Positions 1,931-17,428 of a stretch of DNA of 63,630 nucleotides are shown piece by piece. Within the stretch, counting starts at the first letter, position 1. Each line of letters starts with the position of its first letter. The stretch comes from an uncultured Actinomycetes bacterium (lineage in GTDB: Bacteria; Actinomycetota; Thermoleophilia; RBG-16-64-13), in NCBI GenBank assembly GCA_903873715.1, contig CAIQPS010000024.1, positions 1 to 63,630 of the forward strand, read 5' to 3'. The notes under the pieces are model-generated. The model had not been told where the DNA came from, ran no database searches, and worked only from the letters and a program-made list of their open reading frames with translations. The position numbers were made by a program, and so were the translations under genes.

Positions 1931-4900
1931 CTAGAGGTAGCCGTGTCCGCTCGCGACGGTGAGGAGGCGCTCTGCTGCGGAGGTCCATTCGCGGCCGGCG
2001 GGAACGGAGGGCCCGCACAGGCGGAGCAGCTGTTCTTCCACCTCCTGAGGCATCCTCTGTTGCGACGGATCGAGTATTGCACCCGCCTGCCGCGCCACCG
2101 CGTCGTGGTCCGCTTTGCTCGCGCCCAGTCCGAGGACGGTCCACCGGACCTGCCACTCGAGCGGAGAACGGGCATCCGTCTCCTCCAGTTCTGACAGACC
2201 GGCGTCCGCCAGTTCGGCCGCCCGGCGGTGGTCCCCCTTCCTCCACGCCACCCACGAGAGGTTGCCTCGAGCGTGAGCCACGTACCGCACCGTCTGCTGG
2301 GACTCCTGAGCTATCGCGACACTGCGCTCGGCGTATTCGGCGACCTTTCCGGCATCGCCGTGCAGCCGGTGCCACATCGTCAGCCCACCGAGTGCCTCGA
2401 GTTCGTGGACCGGATGCCGGTATTCCTCGGCCAACCGCAGGTAGTGGGCCAGCAGGCCGCGCGACCGTTCGCGCTCGCTGACCGATGCCAGCAAGGACAT
2501 CGCCAGGACCTGCTCGGCGAGAAGGAGGCAGGCCGGCGAGCCTATCGCGCGATAGCTGGCCGAGCAGCGCCGGGCGACCTCCAGCGCATCGTCGTCGAGC
2601 ACGAGCCGCTGGGTCTGCCAAAGACAGGAGACGAGAAGATCCTCGTATCTGGCCTTGTGCAGAGGATTGCCGCTTCGCGACACGGCCTGTTCCAACTCCT
2701 TGGCCGCTCTCTCCAACCTGTCGGTCTCCCCCATCTGGAAGAGGCAGTCGGCGGATGCCAGCCGTATCTCCAGCCATTCCTCCAACCATTCCCGATCGTC
2801 CGTAACCGCCGGCGCCGCCCCGAGGAGCGCTTCCGCCTCGGCCAGGGCGACCGCGGCTTTGAGCGGATGCGCGCGCCACGCGAATTCGGCACCCTGCTTC
2901 CGCCTGAGACGCGCGCCGCGGATCCTCTCTGCCGGAGGCAGCCTCTGGAACGCCTGCTCGTACGCGTCTATCGCCCCGGACAGATCGGCGGTGAACCCGA
3001 GGGTCTCCCCAAGTTGCTCGTAGATGCCGGCCACGTAACCCGGATCGCGCATCGGCGAACCGGAGGGCAGCAGCGAGAGAGTCTCGAGGCCTCGTCTCCA
3101 GTGGTCGCGCGCATCTTCCCACCCATATCTGGACATCGCGGCGCGCGCCGCCTCGAAGGAGAAGTGCGCGGCCTTCTCGGCGAACCCCAGACCGGCGGCC
3201 GCCCAGCAATGCCGGGCCAGTTCCCCTGCCCAGAGGTCCGAGGCCTCACCGTGAGCGCGCTCGAGGCTCTCGGCCACGCGGGCATGGAGACGAGCATGCT
3301 CCGCCGGCGGCGTCTCGGCATGGATGATCTCCTGGAACAGGCCGTGGGTGAAGGCCCACCGGTCCGGATCGTCGTCCCTGGGCCTCACCAGGCCGGCCAG
3401 CATGGCCTCGTACAGCGACTCGGCGGCTTCAGGACCAGGCACCCCCGCCGCCTCGGCGAGCTCAGGCACCCTGAACTCGGTCCCGAAGGTGGCGGCCAAC
3501 TCGAGGATCCGACGGCATGCAGCGCTCACCTCGGACAGTTGCGTGTTGACGATCTGCTTGACGCCCTCGCTGGACCCGAGATGGAGGGCTTCCAGATCCG
3601 CCGCGCAGAGCCCCGGGCGGGCGGACATCAGGCGGAGGAGCTGCGCCACCAGGAACGGGTTGCCGTCGGTCTTCTGGTGCACCGCGGCCGCCAGACGGTC
3701 GCTCTCCTGCTCGAACCCGGCCTGCTGCACCAGATGTGCGATATCGGGCCCGGACAGAGGCCCGAGGGTGAGGACGGACGCGTCGTGCAGGCGCACGAGA
3801 TCGGCGAGAAGATCGGCGACGGGGCCCGTGGACGAGGTGGGAGACGGGCGGTAGGTGACCACGATCATAAGTGGAAGGTCGCGGAGCGTCTGCACGGCGT
3901 GCCGCAGCGCCAACAGGGATGATTGGTCGCTCTCTTGGAGATCGTCCAGAAACAGGCAGAACACGCCGGACTCGGCCCGCTCCCGGACGGCCCTGCCGAG
4001 CCTTTCCAGGCGATGCCTCCGCGCGAAGACCTTGTCGTCGGGATGGAGCCCGGGACCTGCGTAGAGGGCGGGAGCGGAGGGCGCACCCGGCGGCGCGTGC
4101 GGGCGCTCCCCGCCGGCGATCTGGGCGGTCCACAGTTCGTAGAGAGGCGCCACGGACGACCGGCGGCAGGTGGCCCAGTACGTCGCCACCCCGGCGGCCG
4201 CCGCCTGCAGCTCGAACTCCTCGGCCAGCCTCGTCTTGCCGATGCCGGCCTCACCCGCGACAGCGACCGCGCCCACCTGCCCTTGCCGGACGGCGGCCAA
4301 TACTCCGGCGAGCGTGTGCATCTCGGAGTCACGCCCGACGAACGGGGGCGCGGCATGGCGGTGGCGAGGCATGGCGGCCGGGCCGGCCTCCCCGGTGCCG
4401 GGACGCGCGACCGGGAGTGTGGAAGCGAGCCGGTATCCGACCCTCCGGACGGTCTCTATCATCTCGAGGCCGCTCGCCTCGGCGCGCAGTTTCTTGCGCA
4501 GGTTGTTCAAGTGGACGGTCACGAGCCGCATGTCCCCGTAGTCGTAGCCCCATACCGCTTCGAACAGTTGCTGCCTGCTCCACACCCGGGCGGGGTGACG
4601 GACGAAGTGGGTGAGCAGTTCGAACTCCTTGGGGGTGAGGTCGAGCGGCCTCCCGAACAGAGAGGCGGAGTGCCGGACCGGGTCGATGTCGAGGCCGCCT
4701 ACGCTGACGGCGGAGCCCGAACCGACCGTCGCCCGCCCATCCGGCTCGGGTGTCCCTCCCGCGGCTACCCGCTCGATGGCCTCCGGCAAGTCGTCTATCT
4801 CGAGCGTCTGTTCGACCACGAGCAGCGGGACGCGTCGCGAATCGGCCGCGAGCCGCAGTCGGCTCATCTCCTCAGCCGGGAACGGACCGGTACGGACGAC

Positions 4901-5059
4901 CACGACCGCGGGGGCGTTCTTGGTGAGATGACGCTCGGCCGTCTTCGGATCGAGCACCGACAGGACCGAGTAGCCGGCGTCCTTCAGGAGGCGGGCGATG
5001 GGCTCCTGGGAGTCGAGGCCGGCCACGACGACGATCCGCATCAACGATCGGTCGCTCAT
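1931..5059 (-). CDS. Large transcriptional regulator: receiver-like, OmpR-type winged helix, AAA ATPase and helical repeats
   Basis: About 1042 residues. The N-terminal ~100 residues look like a response-regulator receiver fold (MRIVVVAG onward), but the phospho-acceptor strand reads AVVVVRTG with no aspartate, so phosphorylation is unlikely. Residues ~120-215 form an OmpR/PhoB winged helix (LTPKEFELL, WSRQQLFEAVWG, RRVGYRL). A STAND/MalT-like ATPase follows, with Walker A GEAGIGKT and Walker B CLFLDDLQ, then a long TPR-like helical region to the C-terminus. This is the logic of ATP-dependent activators such as AfsR, but without the BTAD domain of SARPs. ATG 5059 is chosen over an upstream GTG at 5140; ATG 5041, at the first receiver strand, is also possible. 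Likely targets are the adjacent exporter, dioxygenase and hydrolase genes (inference). Confidence 0.85.
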   Translation of the reverse strand: MSDRSLMRIVVVAGLDSQEPIARLLKDAGYSVLSVLDPKTAERHLTKNAPAVVVVRTGPFPAEEMSRLRLAADSRRVPLLVVEQTLEIDDLPEAIERVAAGGTPEPDGRATVGSGSAVSVGGLDIDPVRHSASLFGRPLDLTPKEFELLTHFVRHPARVWSRQQLFEAVWGYDYGDMRLVTVHLNNLRKKLRAEASGLEMIETVRRVGYRLASTLPVARPGTGEAGPAAMPRHRHAAPPFVGRDSEMHTLAGVLAAVRQGQVGAVAVAGEAGIGKTRLAEEFELQAAAAGVATYWATCRRSSVAPLYELWTAQIAGGERPHAPPGAPSAPALYAGPGLHPDDKVFARRHRLERLGRAVRERAESGVFCLFLDDLQESDQSSLLALRHAVQTLRDLPLMIVVTYRPSPTSSTGPVADLLADLVRLHDASVLTLGPLSGPDIAHLVQQAGFEQESDRLAAAVHQKTDGNPFLVAQLLRLMSARPGLCAADLEALHLGSSEGVKQIVNTQLSEVSAACRRILELAATFGTEFRVPELAEAAGVPGPEAAESLYEAMLAGLVRPRDDDPDRWAFTHGLFQEIIHAETPPAEHARLHARVAESLERAHGEASDLWAGELARHCWAAAGLGFAEKAAHFSFEAARAAMSRYGWEDARDHWRRGLETLSLLPSGSPMRDPGYVAGIYEQLGETLGFTADLSGAIDAYEQAFQRLPPAERIRGARLRRKQGAEFAWRAHPLKAAVALAEAEALLGAAPAVTDDREWLEEWLEIRLASADCLFQMGETDRLERAAKELEQAVSRSGNPLHKARYEDLLVSCLWQTQRLVLDDDALEVARRCSASYRAIGSPACLLLAEQVLAMSLLASVSERERSRGLLAHYLRLAEEYRHPVHELEALGGLTMWHRLHGDAGKVAEYAERSVAIAQESQQTVRYVAHARGNLSWVAWRKGDHRRAAELADAGLSELEETDARSPLEWQVRWTVLGLGASKADHDAVARQAGAILDPSQQRMPQEVEEQLLRLCGPSVPAGREWTSAAERLLTVASGHGYL

Positions 5060-5215
5060 CTCTTGAGCATATCCCTGGACGAGGGGGGACGCCACAGGAT
5101 GTTGCGGCGGATGCCTCCACGGGCGGCGGCAGCGATTCACCGGCGCGGCGCAGCCCGGCGCGCCGCTGGAGGCACGGGCTGCTCGGGCGCCGCGAGCGGC
5201 ACCGGGCGGCGCGGC

Positions 5216-7831: not shown

Positions 7832-10800
7832 TCACTTCCTGCCGCTGACGATGTCGTAGAGCAGCGCGCCGAACTGCATCATGTCGAAGCTCGTCCGTCC
7901 GGTCCGCGCCCAGGACCACCAGTCGAACTTCATGTGGAAGGACAGCGGGTCGAGGACGGCGTCGAGGCCGCCGTCGTACTCGATCCAGTGGTTCGGATAG
8001 GCGGGCACGTACCACGAGTGGGCGCCGGGGACTATGCCGGTGACGTCTTCGAAGATCGTGCCGTCGACCAGCAGGAAGATGGCCCCGTTCTTGGTGAGCA
8101 GGTTGTCGGTGTCCGCGTTCTTGAGAGCCAGACCCTTCGTTCCGCCCAGCCCGGCGGAGTAGAGCGTGCCCGCAGAGGCGGTGGGCAGACCCAGGATCTG
8201 CTTGCACCATTCCTGCATCTCGTCGGGGAACGTGATTCCCGCGATGTCGCGGAGGAACGCACTCTCGTTCTCGGCGGGGAACAGGACGTTGCTCGCGTCG
8301 CGCAGGGCCCCGAGCAGGAACCAGTCGGCGAGCGACGGGTCGTTGGTGGTGCTCGGCGGCGTCGCCGTGATGAAGCTGTCGCGAGGCGTGTACACCACCG
8401 CGGCCTTACCCGTGAGGTGGCCGGTCTCGTAGAGTTCCTTGATGGCGTTCACGTAGAACGTGGGATCGCGCAGCAGCAGGTTGTGGACTATGGCTGCAGG
8501 ACCGCACCAGGGGGTGTTCTTCTGGTTGACCAGGGTCGGGTCGTTGATCTTCTTGAGCATGTCTTCCAGGAGGGAGCCCTTGGAGACGTTCGGCCACACC
8601 CCTTTGACCTCGGAGTCCTTGAACGTCTGCCACGCCGTGTAGGCCTGGGATTTCGCGTAGGTCATGAACGGCGTCGTGCTGACCATCGGCCTCGACTGGC
8701 CGGAACCGTTGGTGTACGTGTTGATCTTGTCACCCGTGCCGATATAGAGCGACGAGTTGGTGGACGGGCCCGAACTGGTGCCCCAGTAGTTGCCGGCCGC
8801 GTTGACGATGAAGTCCGGGAAAGAACCGGTCAATCCGGACTCGTTGAATATGCCGTAGCTGACGTTCGACTTGAAGGTGTTGCCGATGATGACCAGATCG
8901 GAGGCGTTCGCGTCGACACCGGTGTCGTTGTAGCTGAAGACGCTGTTGAGGACCTTCACGTTCGCCCGGTTGATGTTCGAGGACACGGTCAGGCCCTCGC
9001 TCGCGTAGAGCACCCTCGCCCGGTCGAAGGACGCGCGGCCGCCGGTGATGGTGATGCCGTTCCAGTCCGACGCGCCTCCGGTGCTGGCGCCGTCTCCGTT
9101 GGAGTCGCCCGCCACGCTGTCGTCGTTCCACGAGGTGAAGATGACGGGGCTTGTGTTGGTGCCCTTGGCGATGAGACCGGTCCCAACGGCGTTGGCGGTG
9201 ACCGTCAGTTTGTTGTACTTGAACTTGAGCTTCGCACCGGCGGCGATGGTAAGGGTGGCGCCGCTGGGGACACCGACGTCGCCGGTCTCGAAGTAATACG
9301 CGTACGGGAAGGCCGGAAGGGTCTTGGCCCCGGATACGGTGCCCGGGCCCACGCGGATGGCGTTCGCATGGCCGTTGCCGCTGAACGTCTGGTTGGCCGG
9401 GATGCCCCACACGGGGCTGAGACCGTACAGGTAGATGCCCCAGTCGGTGTTGCTGGAGAAGGTGTTGGTCGTCAGGGCCAGGACGGCGGTGGCCACGGCC
9501 TCGATACCGTAGTCGCTGCCTTGGAAGGTCGAGCTCGTCGCAGTCAGGTTGCCGGTGCCCGTCACGTCCACACCCGTACCGGCGAACCGCACCCTCGTGT
9601 ATTTGAGGTCCGCGCGGCCGTTCAGGAGTTGGATGCCCGTCCACGAGGCGGCGCTGCCGGTGGTGGCGCCGTCGCCGTTCGAGTCACCCGCGATACTGTC
9701 GTCGTTCCACGAGGTGATGTAGACGGGGCTGCCGGAAGTCCCGTTGACGATCAGGCCTGTGCCGACCGCCGCGGCGGCCACGGTCAGTTTGTTGTACTTG
9801 AACTTGAGCTTGGCGCCGGCCGAGATGGTCAGGGTGGCGCCGCTGGGGATCCCCACGTCACCGGTCTCGAAGTAGTAGGCGTACGGGAACGCAGGCAGCG
9901 TCTTGGACCCGGAGACGGTGCCCGAGCCGACGCGGATGGCGTTGGCGTGACCGTTACCGGTGAATGTCTGGTTGGCCGGGATCCCCCACAGAGGGTTGAG
10001 GCCGTACAGGTAGATGCCCCAGTCGGTGTTGTTGGAGAAGGTGTTCGTCGCCAGACTCAGGACGGCACCGGCCGCCGCATCCAGACCGTCGTAGCTGCCT
10101 TGGAGCTTCGAGTTCGTCAGCGCCAGGTTCGAGGTGCCCTGGGCGTCGATGGCGGTGCTGGCGTACCGCACGTCAGCGTAGTCGAGGTCGGCGCGCCCCC
10201 CGGTGAGGAGGACGATACCCGTCCATGAGGCCGGGGTGCCGGTGCCGGCGCCGTCTCCGTTGGAGTCACCCGCCACGCTGTCGTCGTTCCACGAGGTGAG
10301 GATCACGGGGTTGCCCGACGTGCCGTTGACGATCAGGCCGGTACCGGCGGCCGTGGCGGCCACCGTCAACTTGTTGTATTTGAACTTGAGCTTGGCGCCG
10401 GCCGAGATGGTCAGGGTGGCGCCGGTGGCGACCCCGACGTCACCGGTCTCGAAGTAGTAGGCATACGGGAAGGCCGGCAGCGTCTTGGACCCGGAAACGG
10501 TGCCCGAGCCGACGCGGATGGCGTTCGCATGGCCGTTACCGTTGAACGTCTGGTTGGCCGGGATGCCCCACAAGGGGTTGAGGCCGTACAGGTAGATTCC
10601 CCAGTCTGTGTTGTTGGAGAAGGTGTTGCTGCTCAGGCTCAGCACCGTGGTGGCGATGGCGTCGAGACCGTCGTAGCAGCCCTTGACGGTGCTGTTGCTC
10701 ATGGTGACGACCGGCGCGGTGCTCCCGAGGGCGTCCACGCCTGTCGACGCATACGAGATCTTTGCCCGGTCGATCGTCGCCCGGCCGCCGTTTACCTGTA

Positions 10801-11590
10801 TGCCGTTCCAGTCGGCCGGTCCGCCGGCGGAGACGCCGTCCCCGTTGGAGTCGCCGCCCAGGCTGTCGTCGCGGAACGAGGTGATCATCACGGGCGTGGC
10901 CACGGTCCCTTTAGCTACCAGACCGGTGCCCGCCGCGTTCGCCGTGACCGCGATCGAGGCGTACTTCATCTTGACGATGGTGCCGGGAAGGATGGTGAGG
11001 GTCTTGCCCACGGGCACGCTGAGTTGGCCGTTGTATACGTACACATACGCCGGCGAGAGCGTGGTGTTCGAGGCCAACGAAGTCGCCGCGGAGACCTTCA
11101 CCGTCCGCGCGATCAGCGTGCCGGTGACGTCGAAGGCGTCGATGTTGACGGTGGTGGCGCTTGCCGCCACGTTCTTGGTGCCTGCGTATTCCACCCTGAG
11201 GGTGTGGACACCGCTCGCGAGCACGGGGCTCGTCCAGACTGTCGACTTGTAGGCGGGCACCGACGAGTTGAAGAGGTCCACCGTGACCGGGGCGCCCGCG
11301 TCCACCGCCACCAGCAACTGGCCGTAGTTAGGTCCCCTGGTGGCGATGATCGAGATCTGAGTGCCGTTGAATATGGCGATCTTGGAAGCCGCGGAGTCGG
11401 CCGTCACCAGGCTCCCTCCGGAGTACGAAGCACTGGACGCCGTGGTCCACGTCCCAAAAGAGAGCAGGTTGCCGTTGGTCTGCTCATAGCGGGTCCCGGC
11501 CCATGCAGAGCTGGACATCACCACCAGAAGCACCACGAGCACGAACGCGAAAATGATCGAACGCAGCAGCCAGCCACTAGTAGGTCGCAC
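7832..11590 (-). CDS. Secreted right-handed beta-helix repeat protein with C-terminal cysteine-protease-like domain
   Basis: 1252 residues. The GTG at 11590 is chosen because GGGGGGTG sits seven bases upstream and the next residues form a clean Sec signal: RSIIFAFVLVVLLVV, then SSSAWA and a cleavage site. Residues ~25-150 look like an adhesive beta-sandwich. Residues ~175-940 hold four repeats of 193-194 residues, each with AYYFETGDVG, AGAKLKFKYNKLTV, a Ca-binding-like DSNGDG, NTFSNNTDWGIYLYG and IPANQTF motifs; these are beta-helix features. After NYWGTSSGP comes a different domain with TPWCGPAAIVHNLL (Cys1029), AHSWY (His1191), NHWIEYDGG (His1201) and LDP. The order resembles papain-like/C39 peptidases. 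Export and surface location are well supported; peptidase activity is inferred from motifs only. Confidence 0.85.
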   Translation of the reverse strand: MRPTSGWLLRSIIFAFVLVVLLVVMSSSAWAGTRYEQTNGNLLSFGTWTTASSASYSGGSLVTADSAASKIAIFNGTQISIIATRGPNYGQLLVAVDAGAPVTVDLFNSSVPAYKSTVWTSPVLASGVHTLRVEYAGTKNVAASATTVNIDAFDVTGTLIARTVKVSAATSLASNTTLSPAYVYVYNGQLSVPVGKTLTILPGTIVKMKYASIAVTANAAGTGLVAKGTVATPVMITSFRDDSLGGDSNGDGVSAGGPADWNGIQVNGGRATIDRAKISYASTGVDALGSTAPVVTMSNSTVKGCYDGLDAIATTVLSLSSNTFSNNTDWGIYLYGLNPLWGIPANQTFNGNGHANAIRVGSGTVSGSKTLPAFPYAYYFETGDVGVATGATLTISAGAKLKFKYNKLTVAATAAGTGLIVNGTSGNPVILTSWNDDSVAGDSNGDGAGTGTPASWTGIVLLTGGRADLDYADVRYASTAIDAQGTSNLALTNSKLQGSYDGLDAAAGAVLSLATNTFSNNTDWGIYLYGLNPLWGIPANQTFTGNGHANAIRVGSGTVSGSKTLPAFPYAYYFETGDVGIPSGATLTISAGAKLKFKYNKLTVAAAAVGTGLIVNGTSGSPVYITSWNDDSIAGDSNGDGATTGSAASWTGIQLLNGRADLKYTRVRFAGTGVDVTGTGNLTATSSTFQGSDYGIEAVATAVLALTTNTFSSNTDWGIYLYGLSPVWGIPANQTFSGNGHANAIRVGPGTVSGAKTLPAFPYAYYFETGDVGVPSGATLTIAAGAKLKFKYNKLTVTANAVGTGLIAKGTNTSPVIFTSWNDDSVAGDSNGDGASTGGASDWNGITITGGRASFDRARVLYASEGLTVSSNINRANVKVLNSVFSYNDTGVDANASDLVIIGNTFKSNVSYGIFNESGLTGSFPDFIVNAAGNYWGTSSGPSTNSSLYIGTGDKINTYTNGSGQSRPMVSTTPFMTYAKSQAYTAWQTFKDSEVKGVWPNVSKGSLLEDMLKKINDPTLVNQKNTPWCGPAAIVHNLLLRDPTFYVNAIKELYETGHLTGKAAVVYTPRDSFITATPPSTTNDPSLADWFLLGALRDASNVLFPAENESAFLRDIAGITFPDEMQEWCKQILGLPTASAGTLYSAGLGGTKGLALKNADTDNLLTKNGAIFLLVDGTIFEDVTGIVPGAHSWYVPAYPNHWIEYDGGLDAVLDPLSFHMKFDWWSWARTGRTSFDMMQFGALLYDIVSGRK
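8760..11064 (-). repeat. Four tandem ~580-bp coding repeats
   Basis: The same landmark (GGTCTCGAAGTA on the plus strand) recurs at 10445, 9863 and 9284, giving periods of 582 and 579 bp. The first unit (from about 11064) is diverged at its beginning, and the last is diverged in its second half. The inner units are nearly identical in protein and still very similar in DNA. Confidence 0.85.
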
Positions 11591-11760
11591 GATCGGCACC
11601 CCCCGGATGAACGATTCTCTACACGCCAAGCCGTGCGCGGCGCCAGTTGCGGATATGGCGCGGACGCACGTGTGAAACCGAACGGCTAGATGCTAGCGAA
11701 TGGAGGGGGAAGAAACAACAGTACCCTTGGTACAGTACTAAGGTCGCTAACCTTTTTGTC

Positions 11761-12867
11761 CTACCGGTGCACCGAATCCACCATCGCCTTGACGTTCTCG
11801 AACTTGGCCTCGGGCGGGATGGAGCAACCCATCGCCATGATGAAGCCGTCAGGCCCGACCTCGTCGAGAAGGCGGTCGCAGTAGGCCCGGACGTCGGCCA
11901 CGGTCCCCAGGCTGAGAAGCGCAGGCGGGACGTCGCCCAGAAGACACATGTGCCCGGCGAGTATCTTCTTCGCCCGGAAGATGTCGGTCTTGCTGTCGGT
12001 CGCGAGGACACACCGGCGCGCGGGGAGGTCCAGCAGCCGTTCTATCTCCCGGTCCCAGTCGGCGTCGTAGTGGAGAACGGGAATGCCGCCCTCCTCGGCC
12101 ACGATCTCCACGATCTCCTTCATGTACGGCCACACGAAGCGGTCCCACAGGCGTGGCGACAGGAACTCCGGCGCGGTGCGCCAACTCCCCACCCAGTAGC
12201 CGATGGGCTGCCCGATGGCGCGCACCGTCTCGCGGATGCGCTCGCGCGAGTCGGCCATCATCAGGTCCAGGACCGCCTGGACTTTGTCCGGGATCTGGAA
12301 GAGATCGAGGGTGAACTCCTTAACGGTGCGGCCGCCGGCCAGGTGCTCGAACGGGTGGTCGGCCGTCATGGGTGAGAACACCACGTAGCCGCGCTCCATG
12401 TACTCGGCGGCGAAGCGGGGGCCGGCTTCCTGCAGGGCGGCGCCTGCTGCGGCCGCCTCCCCCAGGTACTTCCCGACATACTGCCGGAACCACGGCCGCC
12501 AGCCCATCTCCAGGATGGCATCGTAGTCCTCACGCTGGATGCGGACCTGCTCGTCCAACTGCCACAGGCTGTTGTCCGGCAACTCGCGCCCGGGCAGCTT
12601 GACCGGCGACAGCCACAACATCCCGAGCACCGCGGGGGTGTACACGCCGAACTGGATGGAGTCGACGTCGCCCAGTTTCTCCATGGTGCCGAGCATGCAA
12701 CGCCCTGCCAGATCGACATCCTTTACGAAGTCGGCGATGGTCACGCCCATCGTGCGGGCGGCGAAGGCGTCCATGACGAGCGAGAGCGGCACCCGGTCCG
12801 GCGTGCCGCAGGCGACGGCGGTCTGCAGGCGCTGCAACCTCTCGAAGAAGACCGGGGGCGGCGTCAT
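11761..12867 (-). CDS. URO-D family enzyme, short type (copy A)
   Basis: A TIM-barrel protein of 368 residues in the uroporphyrinogen decarboxylase / corrinoid methyltransferase (MtaA, CmuA) superfamily. The start (RLQTAVACGTPDRVPLSLV) and the end (MGCSIPPEAKFENVKAMVD) are family hallmarks. At the barrel position where MtaA has H-x-C, this protein has LHYDADW: the His is kept, the first Cys is replaced by Asp, and the later Cys in MGCSIP remains. True HemE is unlikely because the HemE N-terminal substrate loop is missing. It is the last gene of the importer/URO-D operon, one base after the previous stop. Reaction and substrate are unknown. Confidence 0.85.
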   Translation of the reverse strand: MTPPPVFFERLQRLQTAVACGTPDRVPLSLVMDAFAARTMGVTIADFVKDVDLAGRCMLGTMEKLGDVDSIQFGVYTPAVLGMLWLSPVKLPGRELPDNSLWQLDEQVRIQREDYDAILEMGWRPWFRQYVGKYLGEAAAAGAALQEAGPRFAAEYMERGYVVFSPMTADHPFEHLAGGRTVKEFTLDLFQIPDKVQAVLDLMMADSRERIRETVRAIGQPIGYWVGSWRTAPEFLSPRLWDRFVWPYMKEIVEIVAEEGGIPVLHYDADWDREIERLLDLPARRCVLATDSKTDIFRAKKILAGHMCLLGDVPPALLSLGTVADVRAYCDRLLDEVGPDGFIMAMGCSIPPEAKFENVKAMVDSVHR

Positions 12868-12868
12868 C

Positions 12869-14095
12869 TCAGTACGCTCCGTATTCCTTGGTGAAGTCCA
12901 CCATGGCCTTGACGTTGTCGATGTTCACGTCCTCAGTCTGTCCGGACGAGCCCATGATGAACCCGCCGTCCACCGCGACCGTATCGATGAGGTCCTTGCA
13001 GTAGGCGCGGACGTCGTCCGCCGACCCGACCTTGAGCAACGCCACCGGCACGTTCCCGGCTATGCAGACCCGGTGCCCCAGGACCTCCTTGGCCCGCCGC
13101 ATGTCCACATGGTCGAACCAGTAGCAGACCTTGCCCGCGGGGACGTCGGCCATGGTCTCCAGCCGAGAGTTCGAGCCACCCTCCACCAGCACGAACGGGT
13201 TCAACCCCGCTTCGGCGAGCGCGGTCAGCAACCGCTGCAGAGTCGGCCAGTAGAAGCGCTTGTACTGGTCGAGCGACATGAAGCCCTCGACTCCCCCGTG
13301 GATGGCTATGAACACCCGCGGGTTGTGCGACATGGCCGCGCCGCGCACGGCCATCTCCACCGCCATGGGCAGCATCTTCTCGGCCGCCGCCTCGAGCTTC
13401 TCCGGGCAGCGGAACATGTCCAGCATCACGCCCTTGCGGCCGCGCAGGAAGTCGCCGATGAGGTCGAACGGCGCGGCCCCGAAGGCGCTCCAGCTCATCG
13501 GGTAGCCGGCCTCGGCCAACCGCTTGCCGTGCGCGCCGAGCGCCATCACCGTCTTGAGACCCGCGGCGCCGGCTTCGCGCAACGCGTCGAGCGCTTCGAT
13601 GCCGGCGGGGGTACCGAAGGCCGCGAACGCGAACGGCCCGGCGAAATAGCCCTGCCCCTCGCGGAGCGGCGCCAGACCCGCCAGCCCGGCCAACCGGCTG
13701 TACGACCGCGGCCAGTACTTGCGCACGATGAAGTCCGACGGGTCGTATATCAGCTCGTCGTACTCCTCGGGCTTCATGACCTCTTCGTCTACGAACTGCC
13801 AGCCGGAACTCGCCGCCAACCCGTGGCCGGCCCATTTGAGGTGCCTGTAGCCTGCGGGCGCCAGGGTGGCGCCTATGGGCGGCATCAGCTCCACCATGTC
13901 CGAGTCGTAGTGGAGCGCCGTCTGGTAGTTGGCCTCGAGCGACGCGTCGATGTCGGTCATCTGCTGCTCGGGCGTGATCCCCAGACGCTCAGCCGGGTAC
14001 GGCCCGGGGACTCCGTGCCACACCGGTACGCGGTCGGGCCTGCGCAGAGCGATGGCGTCGTTGATGCGCTTCTCGCGCTCGGCGAATCCGTTCAC
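12869..14095 (-). CDS. URO-D family enzyme, long type (copy B)
   Basis: About 408 residues. The GTG at 14095 is chosen because it places the family start (FAEREKRINDAIALRRPDRV) just after the flavoprotein gene's stop; the longer frame would run inside that gene. The fold is URO-D-like, but the metal-site segment is LVEGGSNSRLE and the end is GSSGQTEDVNIDNVKAM, so both the H-x-C motif and the later Cys of MtaA are absent. It also carries AIHGGVEGFMSLDQYKRFYW, closely paralleled in copy D, so B and D are paralogues. Whether it binds a metal or works as a partner of the adjacent short copy is open. Confidence 0.85.
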   Translation of the reverse strand: MNGFAEREKRINDAIALRRPDRVPVWHGVPGPYPAERLGITPEQQMTDIDASLEANYQTALHYDSDMVELMPPIGATLAPAGYRHLKWAGHGLAASSGWQFVDEEVMKPEEYDELIYDPSDFIVRKYWPRSYSRLAGLAGLAPLREGQGYFAGPFAFAAFGTPAGIEALDALREAGAAGLKTVMALGAHGKRLAEAGYPMSWSAFGAAPFDLIGDFLRGRKGVMLDMFRCPEKLEAAAEKMLPMAVEMAVRGAAMSHNPRVFIAIHGGVEGFMSLDQYKRFYWPTLQRLLTALAEAGLNPFVLVEGGSNSRLETMADVPAGKVCYWFDHVDMRRAKEVLGHRVCIAGNVPVALLKVGSADDVRAYCKDLIDTVAVDGGFIMGSSGQTEDVNIDNVKAMVDFTKEYGAY

Positions 14096-14109
14096 CCGGC
14101 TGCAGCGGC

Positions 14110-15024
14110 CTATCGCTTCTTGGGCGCGGAGATGTAGTTGCCCCACGCCGTGTACTCGGCGATCTTGGCCTGCACCTCGGGCAGGGCGAGCTGCTTGGGC
14201 TCGTCCACCCATTCGTGCTCCATGATCCAGTGCAGGTGATGGGCTTCCTTGGGTCCGGAGAAGCGCGGCTCCCGGACGTCGTCCTGGTTCCATGCCACGG
14301 AGTATTTCCCGTTCGCGTCAGGCGAGATGATCCCGTGCACCTCGCAGGTGGGACACATGATCTCCGGGAAGTCCTTCTCGATGTACATGACGTTGCAGTG
14401 GCACACCGGGCAGGCGACCGGGGTGTCCTGGCCCAGGAACTTCCAGTCCTCGAAGGGCGTGTCCAAGGTCTTGGCCATGTTCTTGCCCATCTGGCGGCAG
14501 CGCTCGATGGCCCAGGCGTTATCCGGGGTCAGAGCAGCGGCGATGTTGGCGCAGTGGTCCACCTGCACCTGGTCGACGAGGGTGGCGAAGTGCTGCAGGA
14601 ACAGGTTGATGGTCGGCAGGCCCAGGCTGGTCCAGCCGTCGTAGCCGGAGCCGCCCACCGAGATGGCCGCACCCGGGCGCTTGCGTTCGAAGATGTTCGG
14701 CTTACGAGGGAACAGGTGGTTGGTCTTCTCGGCGATGATCATCAGGTAGCTGCAGGCGCGCAGGTGGTACACCGGGGCCGAGATGATGATGCCGGCATCG
14801 CTGAGCAGGGTCTGCTCTAGGATCCAGTCGGTGTCGTCCTTGGCGCACTTGCCGGTCTTGAGGCAGGTCCAGCAGGAGTTGCACGGCGTGACCTTGTGAT
14901 CGAACGCACGGATGATCTCGGTCTCGCAGCCCTCTTCTTCCGCGGCCATGAGGGCGGCCTTCAGCAGCATCTCGCTGTTGGAGTTCTTCCGGCCGCACGA
15001 GAGGCCGACGATCTTCTTGCTCAC
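14110..15024 (-). CDS. Iron-sulfur flavoprotein (Isf-like) with C-terminal zinc ribbon
   Basis: 304 residues. The N-terminal ~190 residues are a flavodoxin-like FMN-binding domain (NADPH-dependent FMN reductase/Isf family). A compact cysteine set, CNSCWTCLKTGKC (C-x2-C-x2-C-x5-C), matches the [4Fe-4S] motif of archaeal iron-sulfur flavoproteins. The C-terminal part has two CxxC pairs (CPVCHC and CPTCEVHG), a rubredoxin- or zinc-ribbon-like site. It probably passes electrons to or from a neighbouring enzyme. The GTG start has AGGAGGAG upstream. It sits inside the URO-D cluster between two long-short pairs, and is a paralogue of the 26307-27311 gene. Confidence 0.85.
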   Translation of the reverse strand: MSKKIVGLSCGRKNSNSEMLLKAALMAAEEEGCETEIIRAFDHKVTPCNSCWTCLKTGKCAKDDTDWILEQTLLSDAGIIISAPVYHLRACSYLMIIAEKTNHLFPRKPNIFERKRPGAAISVGGSGYDGWTSLGLPTINLFLQHFATLVDQVQVDHCANIAAALTPDNAWAIERCRQMGKNMAKTLDTPFEDWKFLGQDTPVACPVCHCNVMYIEKDFPEIMCPTCEVHGIISPDANGKYSVAWNQDDVREPRFSGPKEAHHLHWIMEHEWVDEPKQLALPEVQAKIAEYTAWGNYISAPKKR

Positions 15025-15034
15025 GTATCTCCTC

Positions 15035-16141
15035 CTATTTCACGGCGGCGATCATGGCCGCCACGTTCTCTACCTTTGCAGTGATGGGCACCTCGCAGCC
15101 CGAGCCCAGGATGAACCCGCCGTCGTGCCCCATGAAGTCGATGAGTTCCCGGCAGTAGGTGCTGACTTCCTCGACCGTGCCGAGAGCCAGCTTCGCGTGA
15201 TGGACGTCGCCCTTGATGCAGCCGTGGCCCTTGAGCACCTCGCGGGCCTTGCGGATGTCGGTCGCCCCGTCCAACTCCACCACGTAGCTCGCTTTGGGCA
15301 ATTCCAGGAACCGCGGGATCATGAGGTCCCAGTTGCCGTCGCAGTGGAGTATCGAGACCAGCCCGGCCGCGTGGTAAGCCTCGACCATCCGCTTGAGCGC
15401 CGGGAACGAGATCTCGTCGAAGAGCTTGGGCGAGATGAAGCTGGCGCTGGAGCGCATGGCGAAGATGGCCACCCGGTCACCCTTGGCCCGTTTGGCGTTG
15501 GCGATGCCCATCTTGATGATGGCGTCGGTGGCGACATCGACGGCCTTCTTGACCTTGTCCACGTTGTGGAACAGGTCCATGTAGAAGGGGCGCAGGGAGC
15601 GGCTGAGCGAGAAGACGTCGAACGCCGGGGCGACGCCGGTGTGGAACATGACCGGCATGCCGGCGGCTTTCCAGTGCTTGATGTTCTTGCCGGTGTTCAT
15701 GCCGGCACGCATGAAGCCGAACACCACCTGCAGGCTGGAGAGCGGTCCGGAGAGCGGCGGGTTCTGGATGCGCTTCATGAAGTCGGTGCTATAGGTGCCC
15801 CAGCCCTTCTCCAGGATCATGTCGTAGTCGGACTCGAGCATGAACTCGTCCTCCACGAACTGGAACGGTTCGTCGGGGCCGAGTTCTTTGCCCGGGAGCT
15901 TCACCCGCATCGATTCGATGTATGCGGTGTCGAACGGGTTCAGCGGGAAGATCACGTCCGGCTTGCCGACGCGCGCGATGGTCTTGTCGTAGGCGTCCAG
16001 CCAGACCTTGTTGGAACTGAACAGCTGTTCCTGGGTGATGCCGGCGCACCGCCCGGCGAAGGTCACGATGTGCGGGTACACCGGGATCTCCGGCGTCGGC
16101 TGGAGGGTTATCGCTCGGTGCAGTTTTTCGAACGAGTCCAT
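15035..16141 (-). CDS. URO-D family enzyme, short type (copy C)
   Basis: 368 residues, the same length as copy A and clearly its paralogue. The N-terminus (FEKLHRAITLQPTPEIPVYP) and the C-terminal GSGCEVPITAKVENVAAM are typical of MtaA-like proteins. The metal-site segment is ILHCDGNWD: His followed directly by Cys rather than H-x-C, with the distal Cys in GSGCEVP retained. It could bind zinc and activate a thiol or methyl acceptor as MtaA/CmuA do, but no corrinoid protein gene is nearby. AAGGAGTGG precedes the ATG. Gap to copy D is 30 bp, to the flavoprotein 10 bp. Confidence 0.85.
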   Translation of the reverse strand: MDSFEKLHRAITLQPTPEIPVYPHIVTFAGRCAGITQEQLFSSNKVWLDAYDKTIARVGKPDVIFPLNPFDTAYIESMRVKLPGKELGPDEPFQFVEDEFMLESDYDMILEKGWGTYSTDFMKRIQNPPLSGPLSSLQVVFGFMRAGMNTGKNIKHWKAAGMPVMFHTGVAPAFDVFSLSRSLRPFYMDLFHNVDKVKKAVDVATDAIIKMGIANAKRAKGDRVAIFAMRSSASFISPKLFDEISFPALKRMVEAYHAAGLVSILHCDGNWDLMIPRFLELPKASYVVELDGATDIRKAREVLKGHGCIKGDVHHAKLALGTVEEVSTYCRELIDFMGHDGGFILGSGCEVPITAKVENVAAMIAAVK

Positions 16142-16171
16142 GTCACCACTCCTTGTGGATTGCCGCCTTGA

Positions 16172-17428
16172 TCACAGCCTACCGTACTCCTCGACGGCCT
16201 CGCGCATGGCAAGTACGTTCTCCGGCCTGGCCTCGTCTGGGATGCCTTGGTTGCCGTCGATGATGAGGGTCCCGGTGTCGCCGAAGAGGTCGACGAGCTC
16301 CTTGACGTCGTCCTTGACCTGCTGCGGAGTACCGGTGCAGAGCAAAGAGGCCGGCACGTTGCCCCAGAAGCACATGACGTCACCGCAGACCTCTTTGAAC
16401 TTCTTGCGGTCGATGTGGTCGAAGTGCGCGGCGATCTTGCCCGCGGGCAACTCCGCCAGATACTTGAGGCGCGAGGTGTAGCCCCCTTCGAAGAGCGGCA
16501 TCGGGGTGAGCCCCTCGGCGATCAGCGCCTCGATGAGCGCCTTGAACGTCGGCCAGTAGAACTTCTCGAAGGCTTCCTCGCTCATGAAGCCGTCGGCGCC
16601 GCGGTGCATCGGGATGAAGACGCGCGGGTTGCCGGTGATCCGGGCGACAGCGACCGAGAGTCCGATGCACGATGGATGCATGAGCTCGATGGTCGCCAGC
16701 AGTTTGTCCGGGTTGCGGTAGATATCGAGGCTGCCGCCCCGCAGCCCACGGAAGAAGTCCGAGACCACGTCGAAGGCGCAGGAGGTGACCGCCGCGTAGC
16801 CGTAGGGGTAGCCCATCGCGGCCATCTCCCCGACGTGGGCGCCAAGTGCCGCATTGTTGGCCTCCACCGAGTCGGTGAGGTCGAGCAGCGCCTTGAGCGC
16901 GATGCGCAGCGGCGGCGCGGACAGGATGTTGCCACCCGCTGCCATGAGGTTGTAGGCGTTGGAGAACCACAGAGTGGGCGGAAGAGGGATCTGGCCGAGG
17001 CCGGCCAGCTTGCCGGCCACCCGTGGCAGGATCGCCCGCATGGTGAAGCCGTTCGGATCGGCGAGAAACGCGTCGTATTCGTCTTCCCGCAGATACTCGT
17101 CCTCGTTGAACTGGAACGGCGAATCGTCCGAAAGGTCGCCGCCCGGCCACTTGACCTGCTTGACGTCGAGGGCCTCCATGCTTTGCGAGGGGAAGAGGCC
17201 GTTGGGAGCCGCCCAATCCCAGCCGAACTCCAGGTCGGCTTCTTTCATACACCGGTAACGCAGCTGGTTGTCGTAGCCCGCGTCCCGGTTGGACACCCCC
17301 TTGATCTTCGTGGGGAAGTAGTGCGTCACCAGCGGCATCACCGGGATCCGGTCCGGCTTCTTGAGCGCGACGATGTCGTTGAATCTCTGCTCGCGCTCGG
17401 CGTAGAGCGCGCCTGGCTGGTCGTTCAT
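16172..17428 (-). CDS. URO-D family enzyme, long type (copy D)
   Basis: 418 residues, paralogous to copy B. Family start: YAEREQRFNDIVALKKPDRI. The metal-site segment is LFEGGYTSRLKYL and the end is IIDGNQGIPDEARPENVLAM, so the MtaA His and Cys ligands are missing. It shares with copy B the stretch MHRGADGFMSEEAFEKFYW. It is the first enzyme gene after the importer genes, behind a strong hairpin that may lower but not stop transcription, because no separate promoter is visible in the 37 bases between hairpin and ATG. AAGGGAAG lies four bases before the start. Confidence 0.85.
   Translation of the reverse strand: MNDQPGALYAEREQRFNDIVALKKPDRIPVMPLVTHYFPTKIKGVSNRDAGYDNQLRYRCMKEADLEFGWDWAAPNGLFPSQSMEALDVKQVKWPGGDLSDDSPFQFNEDEYLREDEYDAFLADPNGFTMRAILPRVAGKLAGLGQIPLPPTLWFSNAYNLMAAGGNILSAPPLRIALKALLDLTDSVEANNAALGAHVGEMAAMGYPYGYAAVTSCAFDVVSDFFRGLRGGSLDIYRNPDKLLATIELMHPSCIGLSVAVARITGNPRVFIPMHRGADGFMSEEAFEKFYWPTFKALIEALIAEGLTPMPLFEGGYTSRLKYLAELPAGKIAAHFDHIDRKKFKEVCGDVMCFWGNVPASLLCTGTPQQVKDDVKELVDLFGDTGTLIIDGNQGIPDEARPENVLAMREAVEEYGRL

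What the first reader, a model, noticed from the sequence alone, without database searches (positions are those of the whole stretch)
7832..9000. Beta-helix surface protein ending in a cysteine-protease-like domain
After the beta-helix, about 250 residues carry TPWCGPAA, AHSWY, NHWIEYDGG and LDP in the order Cys, His, Asp seen in papain-like/C39 peptidases. A secreted beta-helix fused to such a domain could be a self-processing adhesin or a surface enzyme acting on peptides. I do not recognise a described family with this architecture.
Basis: partly seen in the sequence, partly recalled or inferred. Interest (0 to 1): 0.6.

Follow-up and report, generated by a model that had tools for sequence, protein, structure and literature searches.

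The report
Surface beta-helix with effector-like cysteine-enzyme domain
An actinobacterium makes a secreted surface protein whose last 250 residues belong to an unnamed cysteine-enzyme family otherwise seen mainly as probable toxins that Gram-negative bacteria inject into rivals, suggesting a cell-envelope-cutting enzyme reused on a surface stalk.

Summary
The gene at 11629-7832 (-) encodes a Sec signal peptide, a 130-residue jelly-roll-like module, a right-handed beta-helix with ~194-residue repeats, and a ~265-residue C-terminal domain holding Q-x5-C-G-P-A and NHW. The domain matches nothing in Pfam, NCBIfam, PHROGs, PADLOC or, by sequence, the PDB. It belongs to a coherent but unnamed family: about 60 loci in Enterobacterales, Acinetobacter, Psychrobacter, Gilliamella and Helicobacter, often beside PAAR/VgrG/Hcp genes and followed by a lipoprotein gene (probable periplasmic immunity). 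Single members occur in another actinobacterium, a MAG and a haloarchaeon. A profile built without the window protein scores it 51 bits against 1.6 for the best decoy. Gln(-6), Cys and one His are conserved as in papain-like peptidases, nearest C39. In the host genome the N-terminal module recurs ~92 times in ~41 proteins, several of them wall hydrolases or C1/C39 peptidases. Best reading: a secreted thiol hydrolase of envelope peptides or proteins, not a self-processing adhesin. Substrate, third catalytic residue and antibacterial role are unproven; no immunity gene was found.

The parts
7832..11629 (-). Whole gene, 1265 aa from TTG (a GTG start at 11590 gives 1252 aa)
11495..11590 (-). Signal peptide region (LLRSIIFAFVLVVLLVVMSSSAWA-G), cleavage probably after AWA; read by eye
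   Evidence: sequence
11099..11494 (-). N-terminal ~130-aa module (residues 46-177); jelly-roll CE2_N-like by its paralogues; ~92 further copies in the genome
8678..11098 (-). Right-handed parallel beta-helix, four ~194-aa repeats plus a final cap (residues 178-984)
7835..8638 (-). C-terminal papain-like domain (residues 998-1265), homologous to an unnamed T6SS-effector-like family
8522..8524 (-). Gln1036, six residues before Cys, invariant; proposed oxyanion-hole residue
8504..8506 (-). Cys1042 (CGPA), proposed nucleophile, invariant
8297..8326 (-). DW....LRD segment (Asp1102 to Asp1111), invariant family signature
7988..7990 (-). His1214 (NHW), proposed catalytic His, invariant
7910..7918 (-). 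W-S-W (residues 1238-1240), counterpart of the family's (S/T)WG; last Trp1240 invariant
7949..7951 (-).

Best explanation
A secreted, surface-held cysteine hydrolase. A signal peptide exports it; the jelly-roll-like module probably holds it on the cell wall or a polysaccharide, and the beta-helix projects the last domain. That domain uses the papain-type mechanism: Cys1042 as nucleophile at a helix start, His1214 as base, Gln1036 as oxyanion-hole residue. It cleaves an amide bond outside the cytoplasm, most likely in cell-envelope peptides (peptidoglycan stem peptides or surface proteins). Shown here: architecture, homology, conservation, neighbourhoods. Inferred: enzymatic activity, surface retention, substrate.
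For: Gln/Cys/His are invariant across the actinobacterial, MAG and Gram-negative members despite ~20% identity; a haloarchaeal member keeps Gln, Cys, His and WG. The Q-x5-C-G-P-A/S motif is the same as in C39_2 peptidases, and hhalign gives E 1e-3 with catalytic His on catalytic His, against 0.47 (C1) and 0.74 (unrelated control). The best fold matches are papain-like: SERA5E and SpeB, AvrRpt2-type. Extracytoplasmic target: 62 of 65 relatives are followed by a gene with a lipobox, against 14% of all ORFs (alignment); upstream genes are PAAR, VgrG or Hcp in many. Host context: the module is fused to NlpC/P60, YkuD, Amidase_3, M23, C39_2 and four C1 domains in the same genome.
Against: No fold match is significant (best E 0.04-0.13) and the model is only moderate (pLDDT 61, pTM 0.62). 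The papain Asn/Asp is not identifiable. No Pfam peptidase model hits the window domain. Lipoprotein immunity also accompanies lipases and pore-formers, so the substrate class is indirect. The module's binding function is inferred from its companions.
Confidence: 0.55

Rival explanations
1. A Sec-exported antibacterial toxin on a stalk, working like CdiA: the beta-helix presents a C-terminal effector domain that damages the envelope of neighbouring cells.
For: The domain's nearest large group is T6SS-associated with probable immunity lipoproteins. Beta-helix stalk plus C-terminal domain is the CDI layout (general knowledge).
Against: No relative of the immunity family in the own genome (without a positive control) and no small partner gene; downstream is an MFS transporter.
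Confidence: 0.2
2. A surface protease for nutrient uptake or for processing other surface proteins, like the C1 and C39 peptidases carrying the same module.
For: Four C1 and one C39_2 protein with the module in the same genome.
Against: The domain is clearly distinct from C1 (hhalign E 0.47); its relatives' immunity and delivery point to antagonism rather than feeding.
Confidence: 0.15
3. A self-processing adhesin: the domain cuts its own chain to release or anchor the beta-helix.
For: Papain-like domains can be releasing peptidases in polymorphic toxins (PMC3482391).
Against: The domain is the last one in the chain and in relatives is fused to unrelated N-termini or stand-alone; no conserved junction was seen.
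Confidence: 0.06
4. A catalytically dead binding domain.
For: The third catalytic residue is not identified; SWG is WSWA here.
Against: Gln, Cys and His are invariant at about 20% identity.
Confidence: 0.04

Closest known systems
T6SS-associated 'hypothetical protein' family with lipoprotein partner (e.g. WP_109728847.1 Edwardsiella, WP_082981375.1 Moellerella, EHY67512.1 Salmonella houtenae)
   Same: Homologous domain over its full length with Q, C, DW, LRD..N, HW and SW positions
   Different: Those are injected-effector-like, without signal peptide or beta-helix, and most have a lipoprotein partner
Cpe1/EvpQ/TsaP papain-like cysteine protease effectors (PMC12136450)
   Same: Interbacterial C39/ComA-like Cys-His enzymes carried by PAAR/VgrG/Rhs or CdiA
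   Different: Cpe1 cuts cytoplasmic GyrB/ParE; our profile finds no PDB chain of Cpe1, ComA or LahT; about 170 residues lie between Cys and His here, far more than in the C39_2 sequences collected
Peptidase_C39_2 (PF13529)
   Same: Q-x5-CGPA/S motif and His strand in register
   Different: No Pfam hit; long insertion; Asp-Pro not conserved in the family
Tae / NlpC-P60 T6SS amidases
   Same: Papain-like, envelope-targeting, periplasmic immunity (general knowledge)
   Different: No sequence match to any such Pfam model
CdiA-type beta-helix toxins
   Same: Beta-helix stalk with a C-terminal effector domain (general knowledge)
   Different: Actinobacterial host; no transporter partner or immunity gene seen beside it

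Membership tests
Papain-like (clan CA) peptidases | Cys then His in order, Gln before Cys | tested here: met
   Q1036/C1042/H1214 invariant in the family
Papain-like (clan CA) peptidases | Third residue Asp/Asn after His | tested here: inconclusive
   D1227 has a DP counterpart only in the other actinobacterial member; S/T/N precedes the invariant Trp in the rest
Papain-like (clan CA) peptidases | Papain fold | tested here: inconclusive
   Top matches papain-like but E 0.04-0.13; pLDDT 61
Papain-like (clan CA) peptidases | Cys-dependent hydrolysis | not testable with these tools
   needs biochemistry
Peptidase_C39_2 (PF13529) | Score above the Pfam cut-off | tested here: not met
   no hit for the domain at E<=5
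Unnamed T6SS-effector-like CGPA/HW/SWG family | Significant score to a profile made without the window protein | tested here: met
   51.4 bits against <=1.6 for decoys
Unnamed T6SS-effector-like CGPA/HW/SWG family | Neighbouring PAAR/VgrG/Hcp and lipoprotein gene (a T6SS effector proper) | tested here: not met
   neighbours are UROD-type, MFS and LigB genes; no match to the lipoprotein family in the genome
CDI (CdiA) systems | CdiB transporter and CdiI immunity gene | tested here: inconclusive
   neither among the ten neighbours scanned; not searched genome-wide

The most novel reading that the evidence does not exclude
An effector domain normally delivered by contractile injection is, in an actinobacterium, exported by Sec and displayed on a beta-helix stalk as a contact-dependent envelope-cleaving toxin or wall hydrolase: a T6SS-effector family working without a T6SS.
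Probability: 0.25. Interest if true: 0.7.

Novelty: new variant of a known kind. Interest (0 to 1): 0.5.

Why it matters
It joins an orphan actinobacterial surface domain to a widespread but unannotated effector family that has a probable lipoprotein immunity partner, giving that family testable catalytic residues, an expected compartment, and members in Actinomycetota and Halobacteria. It also shows such a domain reused on a Sec-exported surface scaffold.

Tried and rejected
Single-sequence scans of genome contigs and viral contigs found nothing. The G071 hit is a thioredoxin (WCGPCR). Erwinia phage RisingSun gp208 (E 0.3) lacks CGP and was dropped. Single-sequence AlphaFold was useless (pLDDT 36). 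Large minus-strand ORFs beside the G348 member gave no families and read as spurious, so a contractile-system neighbourhood there was not shown. The tree joins the window with G348 at 100/98, but both are very long branches and the program warns. DNA search of E. coli genomes with the Salmonella houtenae gene: none. PADLOC and PHROGs: none. TRF found no DNA-level tandem array of the helix repeats; they are visible in the protein. Whether the enterobacterial N-terminal region is the PIX domain could not be checked because that paper is not held.

Full report
The gene. A Sec signal peptide is readable at about residues 21-45. Residues 46-177 form a module; 178-984 a right-handed beta-helix (Pfam Beta_helix 1.2e-18) with four repeat starts 195, 194 and 193 residues apart; 998-1265 the domain in question. 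GC3 is uniform (0.88-0.92) from module to domain and equal to neighbours, so nothing points to a recent import. Neighbours are metabolic genes: UROD-type proteins, a periplasmic binding protein, an MFS transporter, a LigB-type dioxygenase and a large regulator.

What the C-terminal domain is. Pfam, NCBIfam, PHROGs and PADLOC give nothing for it, nor does the PDB by sequence. tblastn against plasmids and phage-collection records found it in Moellerella (7e-6), Edwardsiella (1e-3) and Salmonella houtenae (3e-5), all 'hypothetical protein'. An alignment of these (A2) recovered 58 loci in the genome collection (Enterobacterales, Acinetobacter, Psychrobacter, Gilliamella, Helicobacter, one MAG), 8 viral-collection contigs and one further actinobacterium, G348 (E 2.6e-20). 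In the window's own class it is the only one of 399 genomes, and one of two in 396 of the phylum. A haloarchaeal plasmid (Natrinema) also encodes a member that keeps the Gln, Cys, His and WG positions. The kinship is not chance: a profile built from Gram-negative members alone gives the window protein 51.4 bits, with the best of 200 shuffles and about 41 genome decoys at 1.6.

Catalytic anatomy. Invariant positions are Gln1036, Cys1042-Gly-Pro, Asp1102-Trp, Asp1111, His1214 and Trp1240. Gln six residues before Cys is also the spacing in C39_2 sequences collected here (SQETSYWCGPAS) and in papain (general knowledge). hhalign against C39_2 gives a weak match (prob 22%, E 1e-3) that superposes the His strands; against C1 and against an unrelated control there is none. 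AlphaFold with 22 aligned sequences gives pTM 0.62; the best fold matches are the papain-like SERA5E in the PDB and an AvrRpt2-type protease in the viral library, none significant. Papain-like is therefore likely, not proven. The third catalytic residue is open.

What the family does elsewhere. Of 32 upstream neighbours scanned, 11 match PAAR, 8-9 VgrG-type models and 3 Hcp. Right after the gene, 62 of 65 loci have an ORF with a lipobox, against 14% of ORFs in the same DNA (the search was allowed to choose the start codon, which favours a lipobox somewhat). These small lipoproteins align as one family with an invariant lipidation Cys. This is the layout of an effector with periplasmic immunity, so the target is probably in the envelope (inference). 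A different papain-like effector, Cpe1, cuts cytoplasmic topoisomerases (PMC12136450), so fold alone does not give the substrate.

What the host uses around it. The N-terminal module occurs ~92 times in ~41 proteins of this genome, usually as tandem C-terminal copies, and the jelly-roll CE2_N model matches 23 of 38 such proteins scanned. Its companions include NlpC/P60, YkuD, Amidase_3, M23, PG_binding_1, CW_binding_2, C39_2 and four papain C1 domains. It is thus a general surface module of this organism and often carries wall hydrolases and cysteine peptidases. Our protein fits that set, with a new catalytic domain and a beta-helix spacer.

Verdict. A secreted, surface-held papain-like hydrolase of envelope peptides or proteins is the best reading. 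A stalk-displayed antibacterial toxin is the most novel reading not excluded, but no immunity gene was found (a search without a positive control). Self-processing has no support. The architecture was seen in no other member found; the domain family itself appears undescribed in the libraries searched and in the papers found here, a search limited to openly licensed papers.

Noticed in passing
Own genome G000, e.g. L132-L165; window 11099-11494: About 92 copies of one ~130-aa CE2_N-like module in ~41 predicted secreted proteins, mostly 2-4 tandem copies at the C-terminus; the window protein is unusual in having one at the N-terminus.
   Followed up: partly
L107, L123, L128, L130 (own genome): Four papain C1 peptidases (with Lectin_like domains in the same set of proteins) fused to the same module.
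   Followed up: partly
window 11761-17428: Four UROD-domain proteins in a row with a flavin-reductase-like gene among them, perhaps a corrinoid methyltransferase cluster.
   Followed up: no
window 1931-5140: 1069-aa regulator with a winged-helix Trans_reg_C domain and an AAA_16 ATPase domain.
   Followed up: no
L084:2430-3725: The gene beside the actinobacterial relative G348 encodes an unannotated repeat protein in the same orientation, possibly its partner.
   Followed up: partly
L012:284-1495: In a 2.7-kb Klebsiella plasmid the family gene is split into two annotated ORFs.
   Followed up: no
L167:2716-3999: Haloarchaeal (Natrinema) member with CVAA in place of CGPA.
   Followed up: partly
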